This document shows positions 6,010 to 30,048 of a stretch of 36,126 nucleotides of DNA, in pieces. The DNA comes from a virus: positions 1 through 36,126 of IMG/VR virus record IMGVR_UViG_3300042515_002691. One strand, written 5' to 3'. The first letter of the stretch is position 1, and each line of letters begins with the position of its first letter. The notes under the pieces are model-generated. The model worked only from the letters and a program-made list of their open reading frames with translations. It had not been told where the DNA came from and ran no database searches. A program made the position numbers and the translations under genes.

Positions 6010-6207
6010 CTATTTTCCGTAGCTGGCAATCTCACGAACACGACCGGCGCTGTCAACCTGAAAGCGCTTCCACTCGCTACCGTATGGCCGATTTGCCGAG
6101 ACGGTTCCAACGAATCCAGCAGGAAGCACGCTTTTTACGGCACCCTTTGCGTCCGCTCCGACACCGGTCACAGTCTTTCCATTCAACTTTACATCATAAG
6201 CTTTCAT
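6010..6207 (-). CDS. Small protein of unknown function, first gene of leftward operon
   Basis: A 65-residue protein (MKAYDVKLNGKTVTGV, later VSANRPYGSEWKRFQVD), with the look of a small beta-sheet protein. AGGAGG lies upstream of the ATG. It is the first gene behind promoter repeat P1. Confidence 0.7.
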   Translation of the reverse strand: MKAYDVKLNGKTVTGVGADAKGAVKSVLPAGFVGTVSANRPYGSEWKRFQVDSAGRVREIASYGK

Positions 6208-6247
6208 GCGTCGCGCCTCCTGGTAAATTCAATGATTCCGTACAGAT

Positions 6248-6304
6248 ATTATAACCCAAAACAACCCAAAACGCAAACGGCGACGGGCGCAAAACGCTAA
6301 CAAG
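6248..6304 (-). promoter_or_regulatory. Promoter repeat P1 (minus strand)
   Basis: Read on the minus strand: TTTTGGGTTGTTTTGGGTTA, with the -10 TATAAT at 6248-6253. The -35 is weak (TTGCGT, 17 bases upstream). The 9-mer TTTTGGGTT is repeated in tandem in the spacer, as in P2 and P3. A nearly identical 56-bp copy lies at 7637-7692. It drives the 6207-4016 operon. Confidence 0.7.
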
Positions 6305-6336
6305 CGGCACCCCGGCAGTGCCGGAATGCTGATATT

Positions 6337-6741
6337 TTATTGTCGATTTCGGATGTTGAGGCGAGACAAAAGACTGAGGACTATGGCAGGGGGAACGATG
6401 ACGATGGGGCCGCTCTGGGCAAGAAAAAGCCCCAGCCAGGCGGCCAGGGCTAAAATTAAAATAGCGACATTTGCGCCCCACCGGGCGGCGGCTGTGCAGC
6501 GGGCAGACCGGGAGACCAGCGAGATCTGCCAGGGGCAGCAGAGCAGGCAGAGCAATGATTACAGTAGCAAAATGGATGATCTGCCCCACTGGCCCCCAGC
6601 ACGAGCGCCCAGCCGCCACAGGCAGGACACACGCACGAGAAAGACCGCACGCGCAAAGGGCGCAGCAGGGGGGCGGCGGCAGTGGCAGCAGGGCCAGGGG
6701 AGCAGGACGGGCAACGCAGCGACGAACAACGGCCAGTACAT
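6337..6741 (-). other. Hydrophobic minus-strand frames downstream of P2 (doubtful)
   Basis: Two successive frames (6741-6559, 60 codons; 6555-6337, from a TTG) encode Leu/Ala/Val/Pro-rich peptides, the second ending with a plausible membrane segment (NVAILILALAAWLGLFLA) and a polar tail. Neither has a clear ribosome site, and the A-poor composition would create hydrophobic codons anyway. They are recorded as possible small membrane proteins only. Confidence 0.15.
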
Positions 6742-7636
6742 TCGGGATTCATGATCATTTACTCACTTTCGACTTAGGCGAGAGAAACAGGGCGGCGCGC
6801 CAGAAGCAAGGCGGGACGCACCAGGGCGGGAGGGGGGGAGCAGCGGGAAGCAAGGGAGGCAACGCCGGCCCACCGCGGAAGACCCCGACCGCGGCGGGCA
6901 AAATTACAGCAGCGCGCCGGCGACGGCGGACGCCAGAGCGGGGAGTGAGGCCACCCCCCCAGCGGGGAACCAGAAAGCGCGATGCGCCCCCGCAGGACCG
7001 AACGCGCCTGGAAAGGGAACCGACCCGGCGACGGGAACGAGGACGGCGGCAGCGCCGCCAGGGACGGCGCGCCAGCGGCGGGAGCCGCGGAGGAAGCGGC
7101 CAGCGGCAACCCCACCGGCAAAATTAAACAGCAACGCAACGCCGGACGGCGACCGCGGGCAGGCCACCACCGCCACCGACAGCAGCCCGCCGCGGCGGAA
7201 GGCCGACCAAATTAATGATTTGACTGCCCCCCCAGAGACAAGCACGGGGCCAGCCCAGGGGGAGGCGGAAAAATTATGATTCACAGCGCACCCCCCACCG
7301 GCAGCAGCCGAGCGCGGCGGGCGCGCCCCCAGGAGACAGCCCGCAGGCCGAGGGAGGCAGCGACAGGGCCGACAGCAACGCCGCGGGGGGCCACCACCAG
7401 CCACCAGGCGCCGCCAGCAAAGCCGACAGCGGCAGACAGGCCGCGGGAGGACCGCACCCAGCCCAGGGCGGCAGCAAGGCGGGCGACAGCGCCGCCCCCA
7501 GCGAAGGACAGCGCCGCCACCGAGGGAGCAGCAGCAAGACGGGAGGAGGAGAGCGCAGCAACGGACGACGGAATAAAATTCATATTAACCCCCAAGGAAG
7601 GCACCAGCCGCGAAAGAGCAGAGAATTGATGAGATT

Positions 7637-7692
7637 ATTATAACCCAAAACAACCCAAAGCGCAAACGGCGACGGGCGCAAAACGCAACAAG
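7637..7692 (-). promoter_or_regulatory. Promoter repeat P2 (minus strand)
   Basis: A second copy of P1 with a perfect -10 TATAAT (7637-7642), the same tandem TTTTGGGTT boxes and the same upstream block, differing by about two changes. It points leftwards into the T-depleted segment. Confidence 0.65.
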
Positions 7693-7876
7693 GCGCCGCC
7701 CCCACCACCCCCAGCACGGCCAGGGCGACGAACGCAGCGCGGACGCCGAACCACATATTAGGAAAAATTTTTGTGGCGGCGTGAGATCGAGAAACGGAGA
7801 CAAGATCGCCCGCCTGCTGTTAATCGGCAAAAAAGAGGGGGGTGGGATCTAGGGTGTCACGACCTGCCGGCTTACC

Positions 7877-8020
7877 GTCTGAGGCAGTTTGAATTTTGTT
7901 TTTGGATTTGCTTGGAATGTTACAAGGTTTGGGATGCTGGCAAGAATGGGTATGTAGATTTGCGAAGTTGAGCCTCACAGTTGACACAAATCCAAAAACA
8001 AAATTCAAACTGACTCAGAC
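7877..8020. repeat. 34-bp inverted repeat, 76-base interior
   Basis: 7877-7910 and 7987-8020 are inverted repeats matching at 33 of 34 positions, and the inner 26 are perfect (CAGTTTGAATTTTG and onwards). The AT-rich arms contrast with the GC-rich surroundings. No transposase gene is present, so it could be a MITE-like element, a recombination site or a structured RNA. Confidence 0.85.
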
Positions 8021-8083
8021 ATTATTTTTCCCCGCCAGGCCAACCGCGATGATAAGCTGGAAGGCCTGGCGGGGGAAAATAAT
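8021..8083. repeat. 21-bp inverted repeat abutting the previous one
   Basis: 8021-8041 and 8063-8083 pair with one mismatch (ATTATTTTTCCCCGCCAGGCC against its complement) around a 21-base loop. It begins at the base after the first inverted repeat ends. Confidence 0.85.
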
Positions 8084-8366
8084 CACGGGAAACCAGAATG
8101 GCGTGAGTCCTGCGATCTGTGATCCGCTGTGGCGTGAGATTGCGCTTCGGCGATGGTTTCAAGATAGGATCTTTGCTGGCTTGCGTGGGCTTCAAGTTTC
8201 TGTCTCAAATTCGGCAATGAGCTACAAACGCGGCGGGGGTGCGGGGGTGCTTGGGGGCAGATCGCCCCCAGCCGGCGTAGGAGCGACTGCACCGGAGCCG
8301 GGAGCGGGAGCGGGTAGGGGCCCCCCGCTGGCCGTAGGCCAACCAACGTCAACGCAAGTGCGCGGA

Positions 8367-8432
8367 GATCGGGCGAGAGCGGGGATCAGGTTGCCGAACT
8401 CCGAAGCGCACGCTCTGCTGGTTCGATCTCGG
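8367..8432. repeat. Dispersed repeat R1, copy 2
   Basis: Matches 2217-2280 with a few insertions, and is followed 41 bases later by repeat R2 copy 3. Confidence 0.75.
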
Positions 8433-8473
8433 AGACATGATCAAACGTGGACGGGGATCAAAGTGCGGATGAA

Positions 8474-8580
8474 CAGAATGATCCGAACCGCGCCTACGGG
8501 AGAATCAAGAGCAAGGGCCCGTTCCAACTATCTAAAACCCCTCCTGACTGCCCTTGCGGACAACTCTCGGTCACGGCGAT
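8474..8580 (+). repeat. Dispersed repeat R2, copy 3
   Basis: A diverged copy of 3863-3965. Its frame from the ATG at 8478 stays open for 53 codons to 8639 (MIRTAPTGESRARARSNYLK onward). Frame conservation between copies 2 and 3 is suggestive, but no ribosome site is evident. Confidence 0.6.
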
Positions 8581-8755
8581 CCAACGCCGCTAAGACGAAT
8601 GATTGCAGGCATGCCACGAACGGAGGTGCAAGCCATTAACAACCCAAAGAGTGAGGTTGACAGCAGGGCGTACCATCAAGTGATTTTTCGTCCTGCCAGA
8701 ACCAGGATCGAAAGCGCGCCGGGATCGAATAGCCGATCACACCACCTTTTTCCCC

Positions 8756-9154: not shown

Positions 9155-9169
9155 TAGAACGATTCTAAA
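9155..9169. promoter_or_regulatory. Operator-like palindrome between recombinase and HTH gene
   Basis: TTAGAA CGA TTCTAA, a perfect 6-bp dyad, overlaps the stop codon of the recombinase gene and the upstream region of the HTH gene at 9141. Confidence 0.45.
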
Positions 9170-10142
9170 ATAGATTATCCGTCGCACCCAACGCAACGCC
9201 GTCGATCACATAGTGGCGCGCCGTGGTCTCTATGCTCTTATGCCCTAGTTGCCTCTGGGCAATCCGAATGTCGCGCTTTGCTAACTTGGTACCCACAAAC
9301 CGGCGAAAGTCATGCGGCTTGATATGCTCTAGCCCAACCTTAGCAGCATACCGCTGTACCATCTGCCAAGCGCTGACGCGGGTCATGGGCCTAGCAGATG
9401 GGTCACGGCTACCTCGGCCACCAAAGGAGGTGAAGACGAACGGCGATTCGATGCCAAGCCGGTCGCGCGCCCGTAACCAGGAGTCGATAGCAGCCTTGGC
9501 GCGCTTACCCAGCGGTCGCGCCTCGGCTTCATCCATATTCTTACCCCAAACCCACGCCACCCACCCCGCTCCGTCCTCGCCATCTTGCCATTGCAGATCA
9601 GCCACCTTGAGCGCTACCGCTTCACTGATACGCATACCGCATTCTGCCAGCGTCATCAGCAGCGCACGGTGCATCTTACCTGCCGGCGTCGCTACGTTGG
9701 GCGCTTCGGTGATACGGGCCATGTCTTCCGCGCTGATGGGGGTCCGTGCGTGCTTGCGTACCCGATCCTTGTTGGCCGACCGGCGCAAGCCTTTCACATG
9801 GCGAAACTGTTCGGCCAACTCATAGCTGATGTAGCCTTGCTGGGCCGCTTCCGCCATGATGCTACGCACCGACGCTAACCGCTGATTGATCGCGCTGACG
9901 CTGTATTGTCGCTGGTCGCCTGCCTGCGTTTGGTAGCCATCCGAAAACATGTTCTGCCGCCATCGGGCAAGGGCTGCGGGTTGTAGCGCATTGCCCCAAC
10001 TGGCGGCAAAGAGGACATAGGCGGCGAAATGAGACCGATACTGCTGGATCGTGTTGGGGCTTTTGGTGCCGGCCAAGATCGACGTGTCGAACTGTGAGCC
10101 AAGGGCCAAGCCTTGTTGCTGATAGAGGGCAATTTCACTCAT
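9165..10142 (-). CDS. Tyrosine recombinase 1 (integrase/Xer type)
   Basis: A 325-residue protein with an N-terminal SAM-like core-binding domain (SPNTIQQYRSHFAAYVLFA) and a C-terminal catalytic domain. Catalytic residues visible are R in AECGMRISEA, a candidate K in VWGKNMDEA, H and R in KPHDFRRF, H in QLGHKSIETT and the nucleophile Y in TARHYV. It cuts and rejoins DNA at a specific site. The ATG at 10142 has AAGAGG upstream and overlaps the gene before it by 8 bases. No tRNA-like att site is seen nearby, unlike recombinase 2, so its site and role (integration, dimer resolution, inversion) are open. Confidence 0.92.
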   Translation of the reverse strand: MSEIALYQQQGLALGSQFDTSILAGTKSPNTIQQYRSHFAAYVLFAASWGNALQPAALARWRQNMFSDGYQTQAGDQRQYSVSAINQRLASVRSIMAEAAQQGYISYELAEQFRHVKGLRRSANKDRVRKHARTPISAEDMARITEAPNVATPAGKMHRALLMTLAECGMRISEAVALKVADLQWQDGEDGAGWVAWVWGKNMDEAEARPLGKRAKAAIDSWLRARDRLGIESPFVFTSFGGRGSRDPSARPMTRVSAWQMVQRYAAKVGLEHIKPHDFRRFVGTKLAKRDIRIAQRQLGHKSIETTARHYVIDGVALGATDNLF

Positions 10143-10623: not shown

Positions 10624-10726
10624 GAACAAAACCCCCATAGAGATTGGAATGCGCCTGAAAGGTTGCACCACAACCGACTCCCGTTGCGGATGTTCCGACC
10701 GTCCCCGCAACGGGAACTTTTTTATC
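10594..10726 (+). ncRNA. Putative small RNA unit 1
   Basis: TTGACA (10594-10599), 17 bases and TACCAT form a promoter-like pair. About 65 bases further on, CCCGTTGCGG pairs with CCGCAACGGG and is followed by AACTTTTTT, a rho-independent terminator ending near 10726. Between them there is no plausible ORF. The transcript would be about 100 nt and antisense to the small membrane frame at 10492-10623. Confidence 0.45.
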
Positions 10727-10838
10727 TAAACCTCTCACGCAAAACCACCACCACCAACAACGCCAGCAGCAACACGACTGGAAACCATTCATGACCTGCC
10801 GGCGTGGATGCTAGAAGCCTCTCTGACTGGCTGAACAT
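10722..10838 (-). CDS. Small single-pass membrane protein
   Basis: A 38-residue frame, MFSQSERLLASTPAGHEW followed by FPVVLLLALLVVVVL and RERFR: a clear single membrane helix with a basic C terminus. AAAGGAG lies 12 bases upstream. It overlaps the 3' end of the zinc-finger gene in another frame. Holin-like or regulatory roles are possible but unsupported. Confidence 0.45.
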   Translation of the reverse strand: MFSQSERLLASTPAGHEWFPVVLLLALLVVVVLRERFR

Positions 10839-10995
10839 TTTCTGCTGTTTCTCCTTTCGGTAGGTACTTGGATAACTTTTTGTCGCATTCAAAGCAGATG
10901 CACCGCGAATTCTCATCGTCAACGTCTTCGATCACCAAGTGGCATTCCGGTACGAATCTTCCGCACGCGTCGCACCTTTCCTGTTCGTGTTTCAT
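10789..10995 (-). CDS. Small zinc-finger-like protein
   Basis: A 68-residue protein. CDACGRF and CICFECD give two CxxC pairs about 23 residues apart, a typical zinc ribbon or treble-clef layout, with a charged tail. AGGAGGTGATT before the ATG and a consensus promoter (P3) make it very likely to be expressed. It probably binds nucleic acid or protein; the target is unknown. Confidence 0.8.
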   Translation of the reverse strand: MKHEQERCDACGRFVPECHLVIEDVDDENSRCICFECDKKLSKYLPKGETAENVQPVREASSIHAGRS

Positions 10996-11064: not shown

Positions 11065-11185
11065 TTGCGGCTATCGAAAATCATGGTACAATCTCGCCCG
11101 CGGACGACAACGCATGGTTACCTCCTTTGGTTGATGAGAAGAGCGAGCAGAAAGGGCGATCTGGAAACAGGTCGCCCTTTCTGCG
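11065..11185 (+). ncRNA. Putative small RNA unit 2
   Basis: TTGCGG and TACAAT (11087-11092, 16-base spacer) form a promoter-like pair. GCAGAAAGGGCGA pairs with TCGCCCTTTCTGC around a 12-base loop ending near 11184, with only a weak T tail. The predicted 85-nt RNA contains ACCTCCTTT, complementary to Shine-Dalgarno sequences. No ORF of note is present. Confidence 0.35.
11071..11115 (-). CDS. Candidate 14-residue leader peptide
   Basis: The minus strand carries AAAGGAGG, 5 bases, then ATG and a 14-codon frame (MRCRPRARLYHDFR) ending in TAG, upstream of P3. The ribosome site is near perfect for so small a frame. Alternatively, on the plus strand the same bases (ACCTCCTTT) mimic the 3' end of 16S rRNA inside sRNA unit 2. 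Confidence 0.3.
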   Translation of the reverse strand: MRCRPRARLYHDFR

Positions 11186-11208: not shown

Positions 11209-11237
11209 TTGCCGCACTACAACAAATGTGTTACTAT
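11209..11237 (+). promoter_or_regulatory. Candidate promoter for the CHAT gene
   Basis: TTGCCG, 17 bases and TACTAT. The predicted start of transcription lies at the foot of the terminator-like hairpin at 11246-11286. The match to consensus is modest. Confidence 0.35.
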
Positions 11238-11245
11238 CTGCGCCG

Positions 11246-11286
11246 GACGGTTGCCACTCAAGGTGGGTGGGGAACCGTCTTTTTTT
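11246..11286 (+). terminator. Terminator/attenuator abutting the CHAT start codon
   Basis: GACGGTT (11246-11252) pairs with AACCGTC (11273-11279), possibly extended by CCAC/GTGG in the interior, and is followed by seven T (11280-11286). The ATG of the CHAT gene begins at 11287. The only ribosome-site-like sequence (GTGGGGA) is in the 3' side of the hairpin, so folding would both terminate transcription and hide the site. Confidence 0.7.
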
Positions 11287-11964
11287 ATGCCAAAAATTCT
11301 GCTGATAGCACCCCGATCAACCGGCCTTGTGGTCGAAGATGAAGTTCAGGACATTTTACGCAGTGGGCTAGATGTAACCCCGATCCTCGGCACGGTCACA
11401 CTGCAAGAAATCCTTGATGACTCCGGTGAGTATGACATTCTTTGGATTGCTGCGCATGGTGGGCCGGACGGGGTGCGACTATCAGGCGATCAACTATGGC
11501 GCACAGATGAGCTAATCGACTACGCCAAGGACTTTGCGCTTATTGTGCTGAACACCTGTAGCAGCCTTGAAATTGCGCAGGGGATTAGCAACCGATGGGG
11601 CGCCGGCGTCATCTGCACCATTGCCGATGTTGGGGATCGGGACGCTGGACGGGTCGCCGCCCGCTTTGCTCGTGCGCTGTCAACAACCGGCAACCCTAGC
11701 GACGCATACGAATACGCCAAACGGGGCGCGAATCAAACATATCTCTACGTAGGGGAACGACGCACGATGGACAACAAGCAAGACCTTTCCGCCAAGATTG
11801 ACGAACTGTCTCGGCAGGTCACGAAGATCGAGATCATGCTGAACAAGGACATCACTCTCTTGGCGTCGCGGGTCTGGTTGCTGGAACGAATCGTCGTCGG
11901 CTTGATTGTGCTTTCCCTATTAGAGTCTTGGCTGATCATCTACTGGATGAGGGGGATTGGATGA
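11287..11964 (+). CDS. CHAT/caspase-like protease with C-terminal membrane anchor
   Basis: A 225-residue protein. Residues 1-155 resemble a compact CHAT (caspase-HetF) fold: beta strand PKILLIAP, then YDILWIAAHGG with the predicted catalytic His57, IVLNTCSS with Cys91, a GAGVICTIADVGDRDAG block matching the 'Ga..V.a..w...D' strand, and a helix with SDAYEYAKRGA. Residues about 166-190 are a heptad-like coiled coil and 199-219 a single membrane helix (RIVVGLIVLSLLESWLIIYW). It would be a cysteine protease held at the membrane; no N-terminal sensor domain is present. An earlier in-frame start at 11038 would cross two hairpins, so 11287 is preferred. It overlaps the next gene by ATGA. A defence, exclusion or lysis-timing role is inference. 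Confidence 0.72.
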   Translation: MPKILLIAPRSTGLVVEDEVQDILRSGLDVTPILGTVTLQEILDDSGEYDILWIAAHGGPDGVRLSGDQLWRTDELIDYAKDFALIVLNTCSSLEIAQGISNRWGAGVICTIADVGDRDAGRVAARFARALSTTGNPSDAYEYAKRGANQTYLYVGERRTMDNKQDLSAKIDELSRQVTKIEIMLNKDITLLASRVWLLERIVVGLIVLSLLESWLIIYWMRGIG

Positions 11965-12419
11965 GCATCTTTAATCAAGCGGTTGAGTCAGTCCACAAGC
12001 GCGGCTTTCATAGCGCTGTGCCGTCGATACATTTCCACAACGTGCGCCTTATGGCCCAACTGGCGCGCCTGGCCGAAGAGATCGGCGAGTGGAGCGAGAG
12101 CGGGGGTAATGTCAGTGAGCTGGCCGATGTGGTGATCGTGGTCGCCCAAGTGGCTTGGCTGTTGCAGGTCGATCTTCATGAAAGCACGTTCGATGTGCCA
12201 ACCAGCCAAACCGCCAACCTTTCCGAAATGTTGGGGACGCTGACCCGCGGCCTACGTAAGAACGACGCCACCATGATCGCTATGTCGCTGAATTGCCTTG
12301 TGGCCGATTGCGTGTTGCTGGCGCGTGAAAATGGCGTTCTTGACCTGAAATTTATCATTCAGGCCAAGCTGACGGCTGACGAGAAGCGCGGGTATTTGCA
12401 TGGTGCGCGCCTCAACTAA
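11961..12419 (+). CDS. MazG-like NTP pyrophosphohydrolase
   Basis: A 152-residue, all-alpha protein. LAEEIGEWSESG followed after a short gap by ELADVVIVVAQVAW matches the EExxE...ExxD metal-binding pattern of MazG/dUTPase-like enzymes, which hydrolyse (d)NTPs to monophosphates. Phage copies are thought to lower alarmones or clean nucleotide pools. The start overlaps the CHAT stop by 4 bases (ATGA), so both come from one mRNA. The second half appears to be a degenerate second helical repeat (LSEMLGTLTRGLR). Confidence 0.7.
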   Translation: MSIFNQAVESVHKRGFHSAVPSIHFHNVRLMAQLARLAEEIGEWSESGGNVSELADVVIVVAQVAWLLQVDLHESTFDVPTSQTANLSEMLGTLTRGLRKNDATMIAMSLNCLVADCVLLARENGVLDLKFIIQAKLTADEKRGYLHGARLN

Positions 12420-12441
12420 TCCGCTAAGGGAGTTACTTTAT

Positions 12442-12831
12442 ATGGGCGGGAACTGGTACGAATCAGCCGAATCTCTAGATCTGCTGGCCTACATCATTTG
12501 GGCGGAAGCGGAAGGGGAGGGGATCGCCGGGCAATGCGCGGTTGCCTCGGTAATCAAGAACCGCGTTGCCTCGCCTCGGTGGTGGGGTGGCACGATCCGT
12601 GAGGTTATCTTGAAACCCTATCAGTTTGAGGGCGTCAAGCGACTTGGCACAACAAAGCCTTGGATCCCCGATCATTTTCTCACGCTGGCCGTTCTGGCGA
12701 CGCTGAACCAGTTGGTCGATAAAACCAACGGCGCTACGCACTTCTGCCGGCACGATGTTAATCCAGATTGGCGGGTAAAGCTTGAGTACAAAACCAGAAT
12801 CGGAAACCACGTTTTCTACAGAGAAGCTTAA
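12442..12831 (+). CDS. Cell-wall hydrolase (SleB-like, Hydrolase_2)
   Basis: A 129-residue protein. LLAYIIWAEAEGEGIAGQ carries the conserved glutamate of SleB-type lytic transglycosylases, followed by AVASVIKNRV, KPYQFEG and the GATHFCR..NPDW block typical of that family. It should cleave peptidoglycan glycan strands and act as endolysin or virion hydrolase. It has no signal peptide, so a holin or equivalent is needed. AAGGGAG lies upstream of the ATG at 12442; an earlier ATG at 12400 overlaps the MazG gene and is less likely. Confidence 0.85.
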   Translation: MGGNWYESAESLDLLAYIIWAEAEGEGIAGQCAVASVIKNRVASPRWWGGTIREVILKPYQFEGVKRLGTTKPWIPDHFLTLAVLATLNQLVDKTNGATHFCRHDVNPDWRVKLEYKTRIGNHVFYREA

Positions 12832-13051
12832 GCCGCTTCTGATTGCATCCAAGCTGCCGCCATTGCCCAAAGAGCGCTGGTTGTCGGCTTTGCCTTCGCC
12901 TGGCGCGATGGCGAAATGGCTGCAACTGCGCAAAGAGTTCTTCTGCACCCTCGGTCACGACAACGAGGGCTATTACATCCGGTGCGATCCAGAGCATTAC
13001 GAGGTGATTCCCGATGGCAACAACCAAAGCGGCACTACTGGCGGCGATTGA
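12782..13051 (+). CDS. Hypothetical protein between lysin and structural genes
   Basis: An 89-residue frame from TTG, overlapping the lysin end by 50 bases and the next gene by 38. It contains LPPLPKERWLSALPSPGAMAK and a CTLGHDNEGYYIRCDP segment. Gene order and the lack of any other frame in the gap favour expression, but the start is uncertain. Confidence 0.45.
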   Translation: MSTKPESETTFSTEKLKPLLIASKLPPLPKERWLSALPSPGAMAKWLQLRKEFFCTLGHDNEGYYIRCDPEHYEVIPDGNNQSGTTGGD

Positions 13052-13592
13052 TAACCTACGCACATTGGTGCGCAATCTCCCTGACGATGACAGCGGCGGC
13101 GGCGAAGTCGGGCCGACTCCGGCCACACTGGCGCGGCCTCCGCTCCTTAATCAAGCATCGGCCTACGGGGTGACGGTGCAGCAGGTTGGCACGGAACGGC
13201 CCTATTGGGCGATCACCGTTGCCCGGCATCTATCCCCAGACGAGAACAAAGGCAAGCGCTCGGTCTTCGTTCAGGTCTTTGACGCCAACGGCTGGCGGGT
13301 GCGCGATTCTCGCTTGCGCATCATGTGGACGTGGGCCGGTCGCCAACCTTGGGAAATTGCCCCACCGGCTGCACTGGACAAAGTAGATGGTCCGCTCGAA
13401 CTTGGCCACGGCAATCTCGATCTTTACTGGGGCGCACGCTTGTCTGTCTGGGTCGATGGCGATGGCCTACCCTCTGACGTGGCCCAAAACCTACACACCA
13501 TGCACCCCGCGGAAGTCGGTTCAACCGGCGAGAAGTGGAATTACGAAGGGCATCACTCTTTCTACATCCGTTTCCAGCGGATGACGCAATAG
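13014..13592 (+). CDS. Hypothetical beta-rich protein
   Basis: A 192-residue protein. A helical N terminus and a Gly/Asp linker (DDDSGGGEVG) lead into a probable beta-sandwich (YWAITVARHLS, SVFVQVFDANGWRVRDS, LYWGARLSVWVDGDG, HHSFYIRFQRM). It resembles carbohydrate- or surface-binding modules but no family is recognised. GAGGTGATT precedes the ATG. Its position next to the lysin gene suggests a lysis accessory or virion surface protein (inference). Confidence 0.6.
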   Translation: MATTKAALLAAIDNLRTLVRNLPDDDSGGGEVGPTPATLARPPLLNQASAYGVTVQQVGTERPYWAITVARHLSPDENKGKRSVFVQVFDANGWRVRDSRLRIMWTWAGRQPWEIAPPAALDKVDGPLELGHGNLDLYWGARLSVWVDGDGLPSDVAQNLHTMHPAEVGSTGEKWNYEGHHSFYIRFQRMTQ

Positions 13593-13684: not shown

Positions 13685-14287
13685 ATGAGCAAACGACTAA
13701 AACGCTTGCGTAATGCAGGCCAACAAGGCAACTACAAGCCGTCGCAACCCGAATTGCCGGAAGATTCGCATAGTGACAACGTCCCAGAGGATTCAGATAG
13801 TTCAGAGTCCGCCCGATCTGCCTTGAAGCACTACGATTGGCATGGAGAGTATGAAGAGCTTTGCCAGCGGTTCAACTGGCGCATAGCTGCCTACATCGCT
13901 TGGATGTCGTCACCGCGTCGCCTGCGCAAGCCCAAGACACAGAACGACTTGGCGCAAGCCATTGGCTTGAAATCAGATCGGATGTTCACCAAGTGGCGCG
14001 AGGCTCAACCGGAGATCGACGCCGAAGTCAAGAAGATCCAAGCGTCTCCCCTACTGGCCTACCGCAGAGACATTTATGATGCCCTGGTTGCCGGGGCGCT
14101 GGATGCCGAAAAAGGTCACCAGGATCGCAAGCTGGCCTTAGAACTTATGGGCGACTACAGGGCCAAAGCTGACAACAGTCCACAACTCGGCTTTGAGTTC
14201 ACGGCGGATGAAGCAGCAGAGGCAGAAAAGGCGGTCGAGCAGTGGCACGCAGAAATACAGAGCAACCAGAGCGCGCCGAATGGCTAA
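13685..14287 (+). CDS. terS: Probable terminase small subunit
   Basis: A 200-residue protein with a disordered Ser/Asp/Glu-rich N terminus and a helix-turn-helix region (YIAWMSSPRRLRKPKTQNDLAQAIGLKSDRMFTKWR in outline) like phBC6A51-type small terminases, then a helical oligomerisation part. It would recognise the packaging site. The assignment rests on the HTH and the position just before the large subunit. No strong ribosome site is seen. Confidence 0.65.
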   Translation: MSKRLKRLRNAGQQGNYKPSQPELPEDSHSDNVPEDSDSSESARSALKHYDWHGEYEELCQRFNWRIAAYIAWMSSPRRLRKPKTQNDLAQAIGLKSDRMFTKWREAQPEIDAEVKKIQASPLLAYRRDIYDALVAGALDAEKGHQDRKLALELMGDYRAKADNSPQLGFEFTADEAAEAEKAVEQWHAEIQSNQSAPNG

Positions 14288-15702
14288 AAAGTTCCCGGTC
14301 GGTTGCGTACTGGCTGCATCACCATGTCAGTATCGAGAATGCCAGTAACGGCGGCTGGGTGCGCTTTCTGCTCTGGCCTGCGCAGTTGGGTGTCTTGGCC
14401 AAGCTGGCAACGTCTCGACAACTGATCGTACTAAAAGCGCGTCAACTCGGCCTAACCTGGCTCGTGCTGGGCTACGCGCTTTGGTTGATGCTCTGCCGGC
14501 CATCGGCCACGATCTTACTGTTTTCGCTGCGCGACAATGAAGCAATGGAGCTACTGAAGCGGCTAAAAGGCATTTACAACCATTTACCCCACTGGTCGCG
14601 CTGCCGCTATGTAGAACTGAGTAGTGCGCATGAGTGGGTGTTATCAAACGGGAGTCGCGCCCTAGCTTTTCCAACCACTGGCGGTCGCAGTTACACGGCA
14701 ACAATGGTGCTGGTAGACGAGGCCGATTTCATACCGAACCTGAGCGATTTCCTCAACGCGGTCAAGCCGACTGTGGACGCTGGGGGCCAAATCGTGCTGA
14801 TCTCAACCGTGGACAAAAAGCAGCCGGTTAGCACATTCAAGGAAATCTTCAGGAGTGCAGAGAAGGGACTGAATGAATATGCCGCTATTTTCCTTCCGTG
14901 GTCGGCGCGTCCAGACCGTGACCAAGCTTGGTACAATCGCGTTGCTGCTGACGCTCGGTCTATGGGCAACGGCGACGACGATCTTTTCCAAGAGTACCCG
15001 GCTACCGTCGAGCAAGCTCTGGCCCCACTGCAAAAAGACAAACGGTTCCCCTTCGCCTGGCTCGAAGCCGTTGCATGGGACATTCAGCCTGTCGGCGGAG
15101 CGGGGCCGGCACTTCCTGGTTTGCTCGTGTTTCATCCGTCCGCTGGGGGTCGCCGCTATTGCATCGGCGCGGATTCTGCCGAAGGAAACCCGAACAGCGA
15201 TGATTCTGTTGCGGTTGTCGTGGATGCTGAAACCTGGGGACAAGTGGCGGTGCTGGTCGGCAAATTGGAGCCTTCCGCATTTGCAGGATATATCGATCAG
15301 CTTGGTGCTTACTACAATCATGCGCCATGTATGCCAGAGCGCAATAACCACGGTCACGCAACCATTCAGAAGCTGCGCGACAATGGTCAAACGGCCATTC
15401 TCCTGGGCTACGATGATAAACCGGGCTGGTCGAGCAATGTCAAGGGCAAAAAGTTGCTTTATGACCTGGCAGCGGAAGTAATCCAGCAGAAAGCCACGTC
15501 GATACCTGACCAAGACACCCGCTTGCAACTGGCAAGCATCGAAGCGTCTACCCTTCGGGCGCCAACGGGATTACATGACGACTATGCCGACGCCTTCTGT
15601 CTCGCGCTGGCGGGTCTTCGGTGGAACTACGTTGCCGGGGAACAATCAACAGAGGTAGCGGCACCCGATCCGCTGGAAGAGTATGACCGTGGAACATTCT
15701 AA
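14242..15702 (+). CDS. terL: Terminase large subunit
   Basis: A 486-residue protein. The ATPase domain has Walker-A-like LKARQLGLT (64-72) and Walker B MVLVDEAD (155-162). The RNase-H-like nuclease domain has GADSAEG (309-315), an acidic residue in PERNNHG and LHDDYADAFCLAL near the C terminus. It translocates and cuts DNA during head filling. It begins with a GTG inside the small subunit gene (46-base overlap). The length and motif order are complete. Confidence 0.93.
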   Translation: MARRNTEQPERAEWLKSSRSVAYWLHHHVSIENASNGGWVRFLLWPAQLGVLAKLATSRQLIVLKARQLGLTWLVLGYALWLMLCRPSATILLFSLRDNEAMELLKRLKGIYNHLPHWSRCRYVELSSAHEWVLSNGSRALAFPTTGGRSYTATMVLVDEADFIPNLSDFLNAVKPTVDAGGQIVLISTVDKKQPVSTFKEIFRSAEKGLNEYAAIFLPWSARPDRDQAWYNRVAADARSMGNGDDDLFQEYPATVEQALAPLQKDKRFPFAWLEAVAWDIQPVGGAGPALPGLLVFHPSAGGRRYCIGADSAEGNPNSDDSVAVVVDAETWGQVAVLVGKLEPSAFAGYIDQLGAYYNHAPCMPERNNHGHATIQKLRDNGQTAILLGYDDKPGWSSNVKGKKLLYDLAAEVIQQKATSIPDQDTRLQLASIEASTLRAPTGLHDDYADAFCLALAGLRWNYVAGEQSTEVAAPDPLEEYDRGTF

Positions 15703-28615: not shown

Positions 28616-28657
28616 TGGTGCCCCTATCCCGACTCGAACGGGAACGTCCAAAAGTTA
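28616..28657 (-). other. attP: attP core: 3' end of a tRNA gene
   Basis: On the minus strand: TCCCG TTCGAGT CGGGA makes a 5-bp T stem and a canonical 7-base T loop, followed by TAGGGGC, discriminator A and CCA. No 5' half of a tRNA is present; upstream is the integrase coding region, whose TAA stop (28655-28657) is at the edge. This is the classical phage attP arrangement in which the element carries a copy of the 3' part of its target tRNA. The CCA is encoded. Confidence 0.82.
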
Positions 28658-29608
28658 CAGGGCGTTCAACCGTGCAATCGGGCTGACTGGCGCACTACGA
28701 AGAACGTCCAACACCTCGTCAACCTGCTGCAAGGTGTAGATTACGGTCGTCGCATATTCTGCATGACCCATTTGCACTTGCAATAGCCTATTGTAACTCT
28801 CGCCTTTGAGCGCTCTAGCCCATGTGGTAGCAAAGAGCCGCCGAAGGTCGTGAGTCTCCACAGAGACGCCGGCCAACCGAGCCGCGTCTGTCACTGCCTT
28901 GTATAATCCGCCTGGGGAAATTGCTTTACCCCCTTTCCTAGACGGAAACAACGGCCCTGAATCCATATCCAACAAATCAAGCCATTGGCTTAGGTACGAA
29001 CCGGTAGCAGCATCGAACGCAACAATGCGGGCTTTGTCGTTCTTGGTAACGCTGGGCTGAATGTAGCCGGCGCCATCAGCATGAACAACAACGTCATCAA
29101 TCATGATCGATGCTGCCTCCTCGCGCCGTAGCGCGGTGCCTGCTAACACGGCAATGATTGCCCGATTCCTGATCGGGTAGGCCATCCGCCAACAGGCTTG
29201 TAGCATGGCGGCCAGAGCGTCGAGCGAAAGCGGAAGGCGCGCCGGGGTTGATCCCCTGACTTTCGGCACAAACACACCGAAGTCAACCGGCACATAACCG
29301 GCCCGCTGCGCCCACCGGAACATCTGGCGCAGGCGCTTGACTGCATCATGGCGGCTACCATACCCCCAGCCGAGATCAAGCAACCACTGTTCGTACTCAG
29401 CAAGGTCATTGGCCGATAAGATCCAATCGGTTGCCGGCCCAACGGTCAGCCACCAGTCAACAAAGGCGCGCAGCTTAAACCGATAGCCCTTGACGGTCAC
29501 CGGCTGGACTCTACGCCTGCAATCGGCAAGGTAAGCGCCAACAAGCTTATCTAACTGCTCAGCGCGTAGGGATGGGGAATCTACATCAAAACGAATTTCA
29601 TGGATCAC
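28655..29608 (-). CDS. int: Tyrosine recombinase 2 (integrase)
   Basis: A 317-residue protein with an N-terminal core-binding domain (YRFKLRAFVDWW, KRLRQMFRWAQR) and a catalytic domain with R in GTALRREEA, K in TKNDKARIV, HDLRR, QMGHAEY and the nucleophile Y in TVIYTLQQ. Next to attP, it should integrate the phage genome into a host tRNA gene. The GTG at 29608 with AGGAGG 5 bases upstream is the start; upstream in-frame ATGs lie in the promoter region. Confidence 0.93.
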   Translation of the reverse strand: MIHEIRFDVDSPSLRAEQLDKLVGAYLADCRRRVQPVTVKGYRFKLRAFVDWWLTVGPATDWILSANDLAEYEQWLLDLGWGYGSRHDAVKRLRQMFRWAQRAGYVPVDFGVFVPKVRGSTPARLPLSLDALAAMLQACWRMAYPIRNRAIIAVLAGTALRREEAASIMIDDVVVHADGAGYIQPSVTKNDKARIVAFDAATGSYLSQWLDLLDMDSGPLFPSRKGGKAISPGGLYKAVTDAARLAGVSVETHDLRRLFATTWARALKGESYNRLLQVQMGHAEYATTVIYTLQQVDEVLDVLRSAPVSPIARLNAL

Positions 29609-29745
29609 GGGTGCCTCCTGGGTTATAGGGAAAGGGGAGAAAATCGAGATAACCGGATTGTAGCGGAGAAAAGCGAAGCCCGGTAAACCAGCATACATGA
29701 CAATGCGCTGTTTCTGGACTTTCGCTTTTGTTGTTTTGCTGACAA

Positions 29746-29758
29746 TTTTGTAACAAAA
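29746..29758. promoter_or_regulatory. Operator-like palindrome TTTTGTAACAAAA
   Basis: A 6-bp dyad around one A lies in the divergent region between int and the early genes, directly before the ribosome site of the 29773 gene. It is the longer partner of the dyad at 28108. Confidence 0.5.
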
Positions 29759-29760
29759 AA

Positions 29761-29772
29761 GGACTTCCGACA
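29761..29772 (+). promoter_or_regulatory. GGACTTCCGACA motif abutting start codon (copy A)
   Basis: The 12-mer ends exactly at the ATG of 29773. Together with the preceding AA it forms the ribosome site AAGGA. Confidence 0.75.
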
Positions 29773-30048
29773 ATGCCTAAAACGACAACGCTTGAAACGA
29801 CAACGCCCGAACAGGGAGAGGCAAATGCGCTTCTGACAATGCCTGAGCACGAGAAAGCGGACGCCATTGCATTGCTGTCCGATCTAAATCTTGATGCAAC
29901 CAGGCTCTTCCGCCGATGCCTGGCGATTTGCCAAGTCGCCGACGCCGCACTACTCGCCGCAGTGGCGAAACTCAGTCGCGAGACCGATATTGCGCTCAAA
30001 GTTGCGACGGGGGTGAGCGATGAAAGCGACCCGATTATCTTCAACTGA
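29773..30048 (+). CDS. Hypothetical early protein
   Basis: A 91-residue protein with a Thr/Glu-rich disordered start and two helices (EKADAIALLSDLNLDATRLFR, VADAALLAAVAKLSRE in outline). It is not recognised. It is the first rightward gene after int, with the 12-mer motif at its start. Confidence 0.6.
   Translation: MPKTTTLETTTPEQGEANALLTMPEHEKADAIALLSDLNLDATRLFRRCLAICQVADAALLAAVAKLSRETDIALKVATGVSDESDPIIFN

What the first reader, a model, noticed from the sequence alone, without database searches (positions are those of the whole stretch)
11246..11964. Phage-borne CHAT/caspase-like protease with a membrane anchor and a terminator touching its start codon
Predicted His57/Cys91 dyad, coiled coil and C-terminal membrane helix in only 225 residues, with no sensor domain. 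CHAT proteases are known as effectors in bacterial immunity. Here one sits in a phage next to a MazG-like enzyme and a lysin, and the seven T of a hairpin end at the base before the ATG. Folding of that leader would turn the gene off in transcription and hide the ribosome site. This suggests a tightly silenced toxic protease: a defence against rival phages, an exclusion factor or a lysis trigger.
Basis: partly seen in the sequence, partly recalled or inferred. Interest (0 to 1): 0.8.

Follow-up and report, generated by a model that had tools for sequence, protein, structure and literature searches.

The report
Phage membrane-tethered caspase-like (CHAT) protease
This virus of (probably) Chloroflexota bacteria carries, as the first gene of its late operon, a small caspase-like protease tethered to the cell membrane by a coiled coil; about twenty other phage contigs carry relatives, which points to a little-known protease used by phages late in infection.

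Summary
Pfam CHAT alone is sub-threshold (E 8e-4), but relatives in ~20 other phage contigs give a profile that hits the solved SAVED-CHAT protease (E 1.5e-11, H on H, C on C). AlphaFold (pLDDT 90) matches it at Z 19.4, 1.9 A over 154 residues. H and C are invariant in 16 divergent homologues. The architecture recurs: CHAT-coil-TM, CHAT plus a separate coil-TM gene overlapping by 4 bp, and reversed TM-coil-CHAT. Charge patterns place the protease in the cytoplasm each time. Hits scored in 400 sampled Chloroflexota genomes lack this layout. The gene usually overlaps or abuts the next late gene, with lysin or holin-like genes in several phages. The MazG pairing is not conserved and MazG identity is weak. 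The hairpin stands before the whole late operon, so it is better read as a late-operon terminator than a private lock on a toxin. Best explanation: a late-expressed, membrane-tethered, self-assembling caspase-like protease of the lytic programme. Target and role are unproven; only ~6% of terminase relatives carry it.

The parts
11065..11092 (+). promoter-like site P1, TTGCGG-16-TACAAT, conserved in relatives
   Evidence: read directly; conserved in alignment; below the scan threshold, so weak
11147..11184 (+). 17-bp stem with GAAA tetraloop, dG about -34, no T-run
   Evidence: invariant in 4 sequences
11209..11237 (+). promoter-like site P2, TTGCCG-17-TACTAT; transcript would begin about 11244, at the foot of the hairpin
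   Evidence: conserved; 8 of 12 consensus matches only
11246..11286 (+). terminator-like hairpin GACGGTT/AACCGTC plus T7, ends at the base before the ATG
11287..11964 (+). CHAT-coiled coil-TM protease gene, 225 aa
11287..11754 (+). CHAT (caspase-clan) domain, residues 1-156
   Evidence: dN/dS 0.01-0.05 over residues 1-134 against L002/L003
11455..11457 (+). catalytic His57 codon
   Evidence: invariant in 16 homologues; aligns with His of SAVED-CHAT
11557..11559 (+). catalytic Cys91 codon
   Evidence: invariant in 16 homologues; aligns with Cys of SAVED-CHAT
11776..11889 (+). coiled-coil stalk, residues 164-201
   Evidence: continuous helix 164-224 in the model
11890..11946 (+). C-terminal TM helix, residues 202-220; N-side 3 K/R, C-side 1
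11961..12419 (+). MazG-like small helical protein (EEIGE...ELAD motif), start overlaps the CHAT stop (ATGA)
   Evidence: identity inconclusive
12400..12831 (+). endolysin, Hydrolase_2 (SleB-type)
   Evidence: Pfam E 2e-20
13014..13592 (+). possible lysin accessory domain; a relative is a separate gene in L133 and lies inside the lysin in L147 and L122
13685..14287 (+). probable small terminase
   Evidence: PHROG 309 weak; position before terL
14242..15702 (+). large terminase
   Evidence: PHROG E 7e-36

Best explanation
The gene encodes an active caspase-clan (CHAT) cysteine protease held on the inner face of the cytoplasmic membrane by a coiled-coil stalk and a tail anchor. It is the first gene of the phage late operon, which starts behind a leader terminator. 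When late transcription reads through, the protease accumulates, the coils gather it into oligomers in the membrane, and induced proximity switches it on without a separate sensor, much as holins fire at a critical concentration. It then cleaves host (or phage lysis) proteins at the membrane and helps to kill or open the cell at the end of infection. Shown by computation: CHAT fold and dyad, coil plus membrane anchor, cytoplasmic orientation (charge rule), late-operon position, conserved terminator-like hairpin. Inferred: protease activity, self-activation by oligomerisation, a role in lysis or killing, the substrate.
For: Fold: profile of the phage family hits 8tl0 SAVED-CHAT at E 1.5e-11 with H and C aligned; 8tl0 is identified as SAVED-CHAT in PMC11417357. 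AlphaFold pLDDT 90. Foldseek top hits are SAVED-CHAT (1.3e-9), C11 protease, separase and Csx29; gingipain and caspase-6 follow at weaker E. VIA Z 19.4, 1.9 A, 154 residues. H57 and C91 invariant in 16 sequences, most at 27-43% identity to the window protein; dN/dS 0.013 and 0.054 over residues 1-134. Tether: coil plus TM fused C-terminally in most members, as a separate ORF overlapping by 4 bp in L076, L107, L142, L143, and N-terminally in L029; K/R lie on the side that keeps CHAT in the cytoplasm in the single-TM CHAT proteins. Late timing: ATGA/GTGA/TGATG overlap or abutment with the next gene in window, L122, L133, L135, L136, L142, L143, L107, L076, L147; next or following genes are late functions such as lysin, HK97-gp10, terS/terL. 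Lysis company: window (Hydrolase_2), L122 (holin-like plus M23/SLT lysin), L147 (TM gene plus M23 lysin), L076 (holin-like), L133 and L107 (relative of the lysin accessory domain). Precedent that a gene overlapping terS is late while the prophage defence gene is encoded apart: Tab/anti-Tab, PMC10884400.
Against: In L135-L144 the gene lies among head-tail connector genes, in L145 before a tail-like gene and in L142/L143/L146 before terminase, without a lysin beside it. Only 4 of 65 terminase relatives with 2.5 kb or more upstream carry it, so it is accessory, not a core lysis gene. No toxicity, substrate or expression data exist. The promoters are weak matches; no antiterminator was identified. 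The C-terminal part matches no holin or XhlA model.
Confidence: 0.42

Rival explanations
1. Superinfection exclusion or abortive infection: the tethered protease senses or is triggered by a rival phage at the membrane and kills the cell, as CHAT effectors do in bacterial immunity and as some prophage proteases do (Lit of e14, from own knowledge).
For: CHAT effectors are immune proteases (SAVED-CHAT, TPR-CHAT); the gene is accessory and patchy; membrane location suits entry sensing.
Against: The gene is embedded among late genes by start/stop overlaps and sits behind a terminator, so expression in the lysogen is not expected; no partner sensor is conserved beside it.
Confidence: 0.2
2. Counter-defence or host take-over: the phage CHAT cleaves, titrates or pre-empts the host's own CHAT/caspase immune proteins or other host proteins, without a role in lysis.
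For: 43 of 400 Chloroflexota genomes hold CHAT proteins detectable with the phage profile, including CHAT-TIR-like and CHAT-ATPase-like layouts.
Against: Late placement; counter-defence genes usually act early; membrane tether unexplained. Phage sequences form their own cluster away from most host CHATs.
Confidence: 0.17
3. The protease processes phage proteins (holin, lysin or virion) as an ordinary maturation enzyme; the membrane anchor only localises it.
For: It sits among virion genes in L135-L144.
Against: A TM anchor is unusual for virion maturation; position varies between lysis, packaging and connector regions.
Confidence: 0.11
4. About the leader only: the hairpin is a gene-specific attenuator or translation lock for a toxic protease, rather than a late-operon terminator.
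For: T7 touches the ATG and the only purine-rich stretch lies inside the hairpin arm; hairpin conserved in L002/L003.
Against: All late genes lie downstream on the same strand; distant CHAT genes lack a touching hairpin (L133, L145 and L076 have one about 90-115 bases upstream, most others none).
Confidence: 0.25

Closest known systems
SAVED-CHAT (PDB 8tl0), type III CRISPR/CBASS effector
   Same: CHAT protease domain, dyad and fold (Z 19.4, 25% identity over 154 residues)
   Different: SAVED-CHAT is soluble, has a cA3-binding SAVED domain and forms filaments; the phage protein has no sensor but a coiled coil and TM helix, and lies in a phage late operon
TPR-CHAT / Csx29 (Craspase)
   Same: CHAT protease domain (Foldseek 7e-4)
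   Different: Csx29 works in a complex with Cas7-11 and target RNA and carries TPR repeats; none of this is present here
Cellular CHAT proteins of Chloroflexota (CHAT-TIR-like, CHAT-ATPase-like and other forms)
   Same: same domain, detected by the phage profile
   Different: mostly larger multidomain soluble proteins; no coil-TM layout among the hits examined
XhlA-type coiled-coil/TM proteins of lysis cassettes (layout recalled from memory)
   Same: short coiled coil followed by a C-terminal TM near a lysin
   Different: no Pfam XhlA match; resemblance of layout only
lambda pR'-tR' late-operon leader (recalled from memory)
   Same: promoter, about 190-nt leader, terminator, then lysis, packaging and capsid genes
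   Different: no Q-like antiterminator identified; hairpin touches the start codon

Membership tests
CHAT proteases (clan CD) | Pfam PF12770 above gathering score | tested here: not met
   19.3 bits (20.7 for the domain alone) against cut-off 24; L029 23.7. A curated single-sequence threshold, not a property of the protein; profile and fold tests below are stronger
CHAT proteases (clan CD) | sequence-profile homology to an established CHAT protease | tested here: met
   A5 profile against 8tl0 E 1.5e-11
CHAT proteases (clan CD) | caspase-like fold | tested here: met
   pLDDT 90 model; SAVED-CHAT, separase, gingipain, caspase matches
CHAT proteases (clan CD) | His/Cys dyad after successive strands | tested here: met
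   H57 and C91 invariant in 16 sequences, after strands 51-55 and 85-89; interatomic distance not measured
CHAT proteases (clan CD) | proteolytic activity | not testable with these tools
   needs a bench assay
SAVED-CHAT / Craspase immune effectors | sensor or activator domain (SAVED, TPR) or CRISPR/CBASS context | tested here: not met
   only CHAT, coil and TM; late phage genes around
MazG-like NTP pyrophosphohydrolases (neighbour 11961-12419) | MazG profile match and all-alpha MazG fold | tested here: inconclusive
   no Pfam hit, PHROG pyrophosphatase E 0.03, model pLDDT 57 with MazG 1vmg only at E 1.5; EEIGE/ELAD motif present
XhlA/holin lysis proteins | family profile match of the coil-TM part | tested here: not met
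intrinsic terminator | GC-containing stem directly followed by a U-run | tested here: met
lambda-like late antitermination leader | antiterminator protein and its binding site | not tested
   no Q-like protein searched for; only the arrangement noted

The most novel reading that the evidence does not exclude
A family of phage proteins works as a built-in executioner: a caspase homologue related to bacterial immune proteases, tethered to the membrane by a coiled coil, switched on by its own accumulation at the end of infection, and used to kill or open the host from inside, in addition to holin and endolysin.
Probability: 0.3. Interest if true: 0.85.

Novelty: new variant of a known kind. Interest (0 to 1): 0.62.

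Why it matters
CHAT proteases are known as effectors behind sensors in bacterial immunity and CRISPR. Here the same enzyme, stripped of sensors and tied to the membrane, is built into late operons of phages of several kinds. If active, phages use a caspase relative in their own lytic programme, and a 225-residue self-contained CHAT protease with a simple coil switch would be a handy system to study how these enzymes are turned on and what they cut. The text searches of the open-access library found no description of it.

Tried and rejected
Rfam: nothing in the window. tblastn of three family members in 50,697 phage records, and of the window protein in 72,556 plasmids: none. Genome-contig scan with the CHAT protein: none. 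PADLOC and NCBIfam: nothing meaningful. PDB by single sequence: noise; only the family profile worked. MazG fold test inconclusive. A CHAT-MazG module was rejected: no MazG-like gene next to CHAT outside the near-identical relatives. XhlA membership of the coil-TM part rejected. A longer ORF from TTG 11038 or ATG 11083 through the hairpin was rejected: homologues start at the ATG 11287 position. Single origin of all phage CHATs could not be shown: 15 of 16 phage sequences fall in one cluster (with one long-branched cellular row, L174, among them), while L029 falls outside with a long branch, so it may be a separate capture or an artefact. BFVD gave two viral structural relatives (A0A1P8DJ94, A0A8S5MXG5) that could not be followed up.

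Full report
Setting. The window is an IMG/VR virus record. It holds two tyrosine integrases, a large terminase, portal, capsid and a pectate-lyase-like protein. Terminase relatives at 46-55% identity occur in Caldilineaceae and other Chloroflexota MAGs, some in Planctomycetota, so a Chloroflexota host is likely but not shown. From 11287 the plus strand carries CHAT, MazG-like, lysin, a lysin-accessory-like gene, terS, terL, portal and capsid; the genes just to the left run on the minus strand.

The observation. The ORF, the residues His57 and Cys91, the helix that forms coil and TM, and the hairpin with T7 ending at the base before the ATG are all as described. Strict terminator-like sites (7-bp stem, 4 GC, 6 of 7 T) number 5 in the window against 0.4 +/- 0.6 in shuffles, and this is one of two on the plus strand. 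In L002 the stem keeps its pairing through a G-C to G-U change and a loop insertion.

Is it a CHAT protease? Alone, the protein scores below the Pfam cut-off (19.3 against 24 bits). A distantly related phage (L029, portal 65% identical) carries a 30%-identical protein in the corresponding place, before terS/terL. Scans seeded with terL and then with the CHAT family alignment brought in about 20 phage contigs besides the window. Across 16 sequences H57 and C91 never change. The family profile hits the solved SAVED-CHAT protease 8tl0 at E 1.5e-11 with His on His and Cys on Cys (identity of 8tl0 from PMC11417357). The AlphaFold model (pLDDT 90) has SAVED-CHAT as its best structural match (Z 19.4, rmsd 1.9 A, 154 residues; the next, caspase-6, is Z 14.3). 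This settles fold and family; catalysis is inferred from the dyad and from purifying selection (dN/dS 0.013 and 0.054 over residues 1-134).

The tether. Most members end in a coil and one or two hydrophobic segments. In L076, L107, L142 and L143 the CHAT protein stops early and a separate 79-82 aa coil-TM ORF starts in the 4-bp overlap. In L029 the order is reversed: TM, coil, CHAT. In the single-TM CHAT proteins the positive charges place CHAT in the cytoplasm. Fusion, fission and reversal of the same three pieces are good evidence that the membrane tether is part of the function. In the window against L002/L003, the coil-TM half is a strongly diverged allele (synonymous sites saturated) while the CHAT half and the next gene are highly similar, so the anchor is exchanged as a module. 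CHAT hits in 400 sampled Chloroflexota genomes are mostly larger soluble proteins, some joined to TIR-like or ATPase-like parts; the tool scored at most 7 candidates per genome and only the best hits were fetched, so rare exceptions could be missed.

Gene context. The CHAT stop overlaps or abuts the next start in ten loci. Neighbours are late genes: lysin and accessory (window, L122, L147, L133, L107), holin-like (L122, L076), HK97-gp10 and head completion (L135), probable terminase (L142, L143, L146). Tab/anti-Tab in phage JBD26 is a published example in which the gene that overlaps terS belongs to the late message while the constitutive defence gene is encoded separately (PMC10884400). Presence is patchy, 4 of 65 terminase relatives.

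The leader. Two weak promoter-like sites (11065-11092 and 11209-11237) precede the hairpin; from the first, the transcript would run about 190 nt to the end of T7. Between them is a 17-bp GAAA-loop hairpin, invariant in relatives. Since the CHAT gene heads the late operon, the simplest reading is a late-operon terminator overcome by late read-through, with the side effect that the only purine-rich stretch before the ATG is hidden when the hairpin forms. No antiterminator was identified, so this is inference. Distant family members lack a touching hairpin; L133, L145 and L076 have T-run hairpins about 90-115 bases upstream.

Mechanism. Best explanation: a late, cytoplasm-facing, membrane-tethered CHAT protease that is switched on by coil-driven oligomerisation as it accumulates, and contributes to killing or opening the host. 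SAVED-CHAT, solved as an activated filament (title of 8tl0), gives a precedent for activation in an oligomer. Substrate, toxicity and timing are untested. Exclusion of rival phages, counter-defence, and processing of phage proteins remain possible.

Novelty. CHAT proteases are known; a phage family with a coil-TM tether in late operons was not found described in the papers searched. New variant of a known kind.

Noticed in passing
window 11147-11184: 17-bp stem with GAAA tetraloop (dG about -34) between the two promoter-like sites, invariant in four related sequences, without a T-run; possibly an RNA element that acts on the polymerase, or a terminator.
   Followed up: partly
window 11770-11955: The coil-TM half of the gene is a highly diverged allele against L002/L003 (synonymous sites saturated) while the CHAT half and the next gene are highly similar: a recombination joint inside the gene.
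   Followed up: partly
window 9165-10142 and 28655-29773, minus strand: Two different tyrosine integrases in one virus record.
   Followed up: no
window 10789-10995, minus strand: Small Cys-rich 68-aa gene with a near-consensus promoter (TTGACA-17-TATGAT, 11044-11016) and strong Shine-Dalgarno, divergent from the late operon; may be expressed in the lysogen.
   Followed up: no
window 10681-10727: Second terminator-like hairpin (CCCGTTGCGG/CCGCAACGGG followed by AACTTTTTT) on the plus strand without an obvious plus-strand gene before it; may end a small RNA.
   Followed up: no
window 6200-8700: GC-rich, poorly coding stretch with low-complexity reading frames on both strands.
   Followed up: no
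L024 2661-3179: TM plus long coiled coil, no CHAT, in the place before terS where L029 has TM-coil-CHAT; perhaps the tether without the protease.
   Followed up: no
BFVD A0A1P8DJ94 and A0A8S5MXG5 (Myoviridae sp. ctWaE18): Two predicted viral proteins structurally like the model (E 7e-12 and 9e-6), likely further viral CHAT-like proteases.
   Followed up: no
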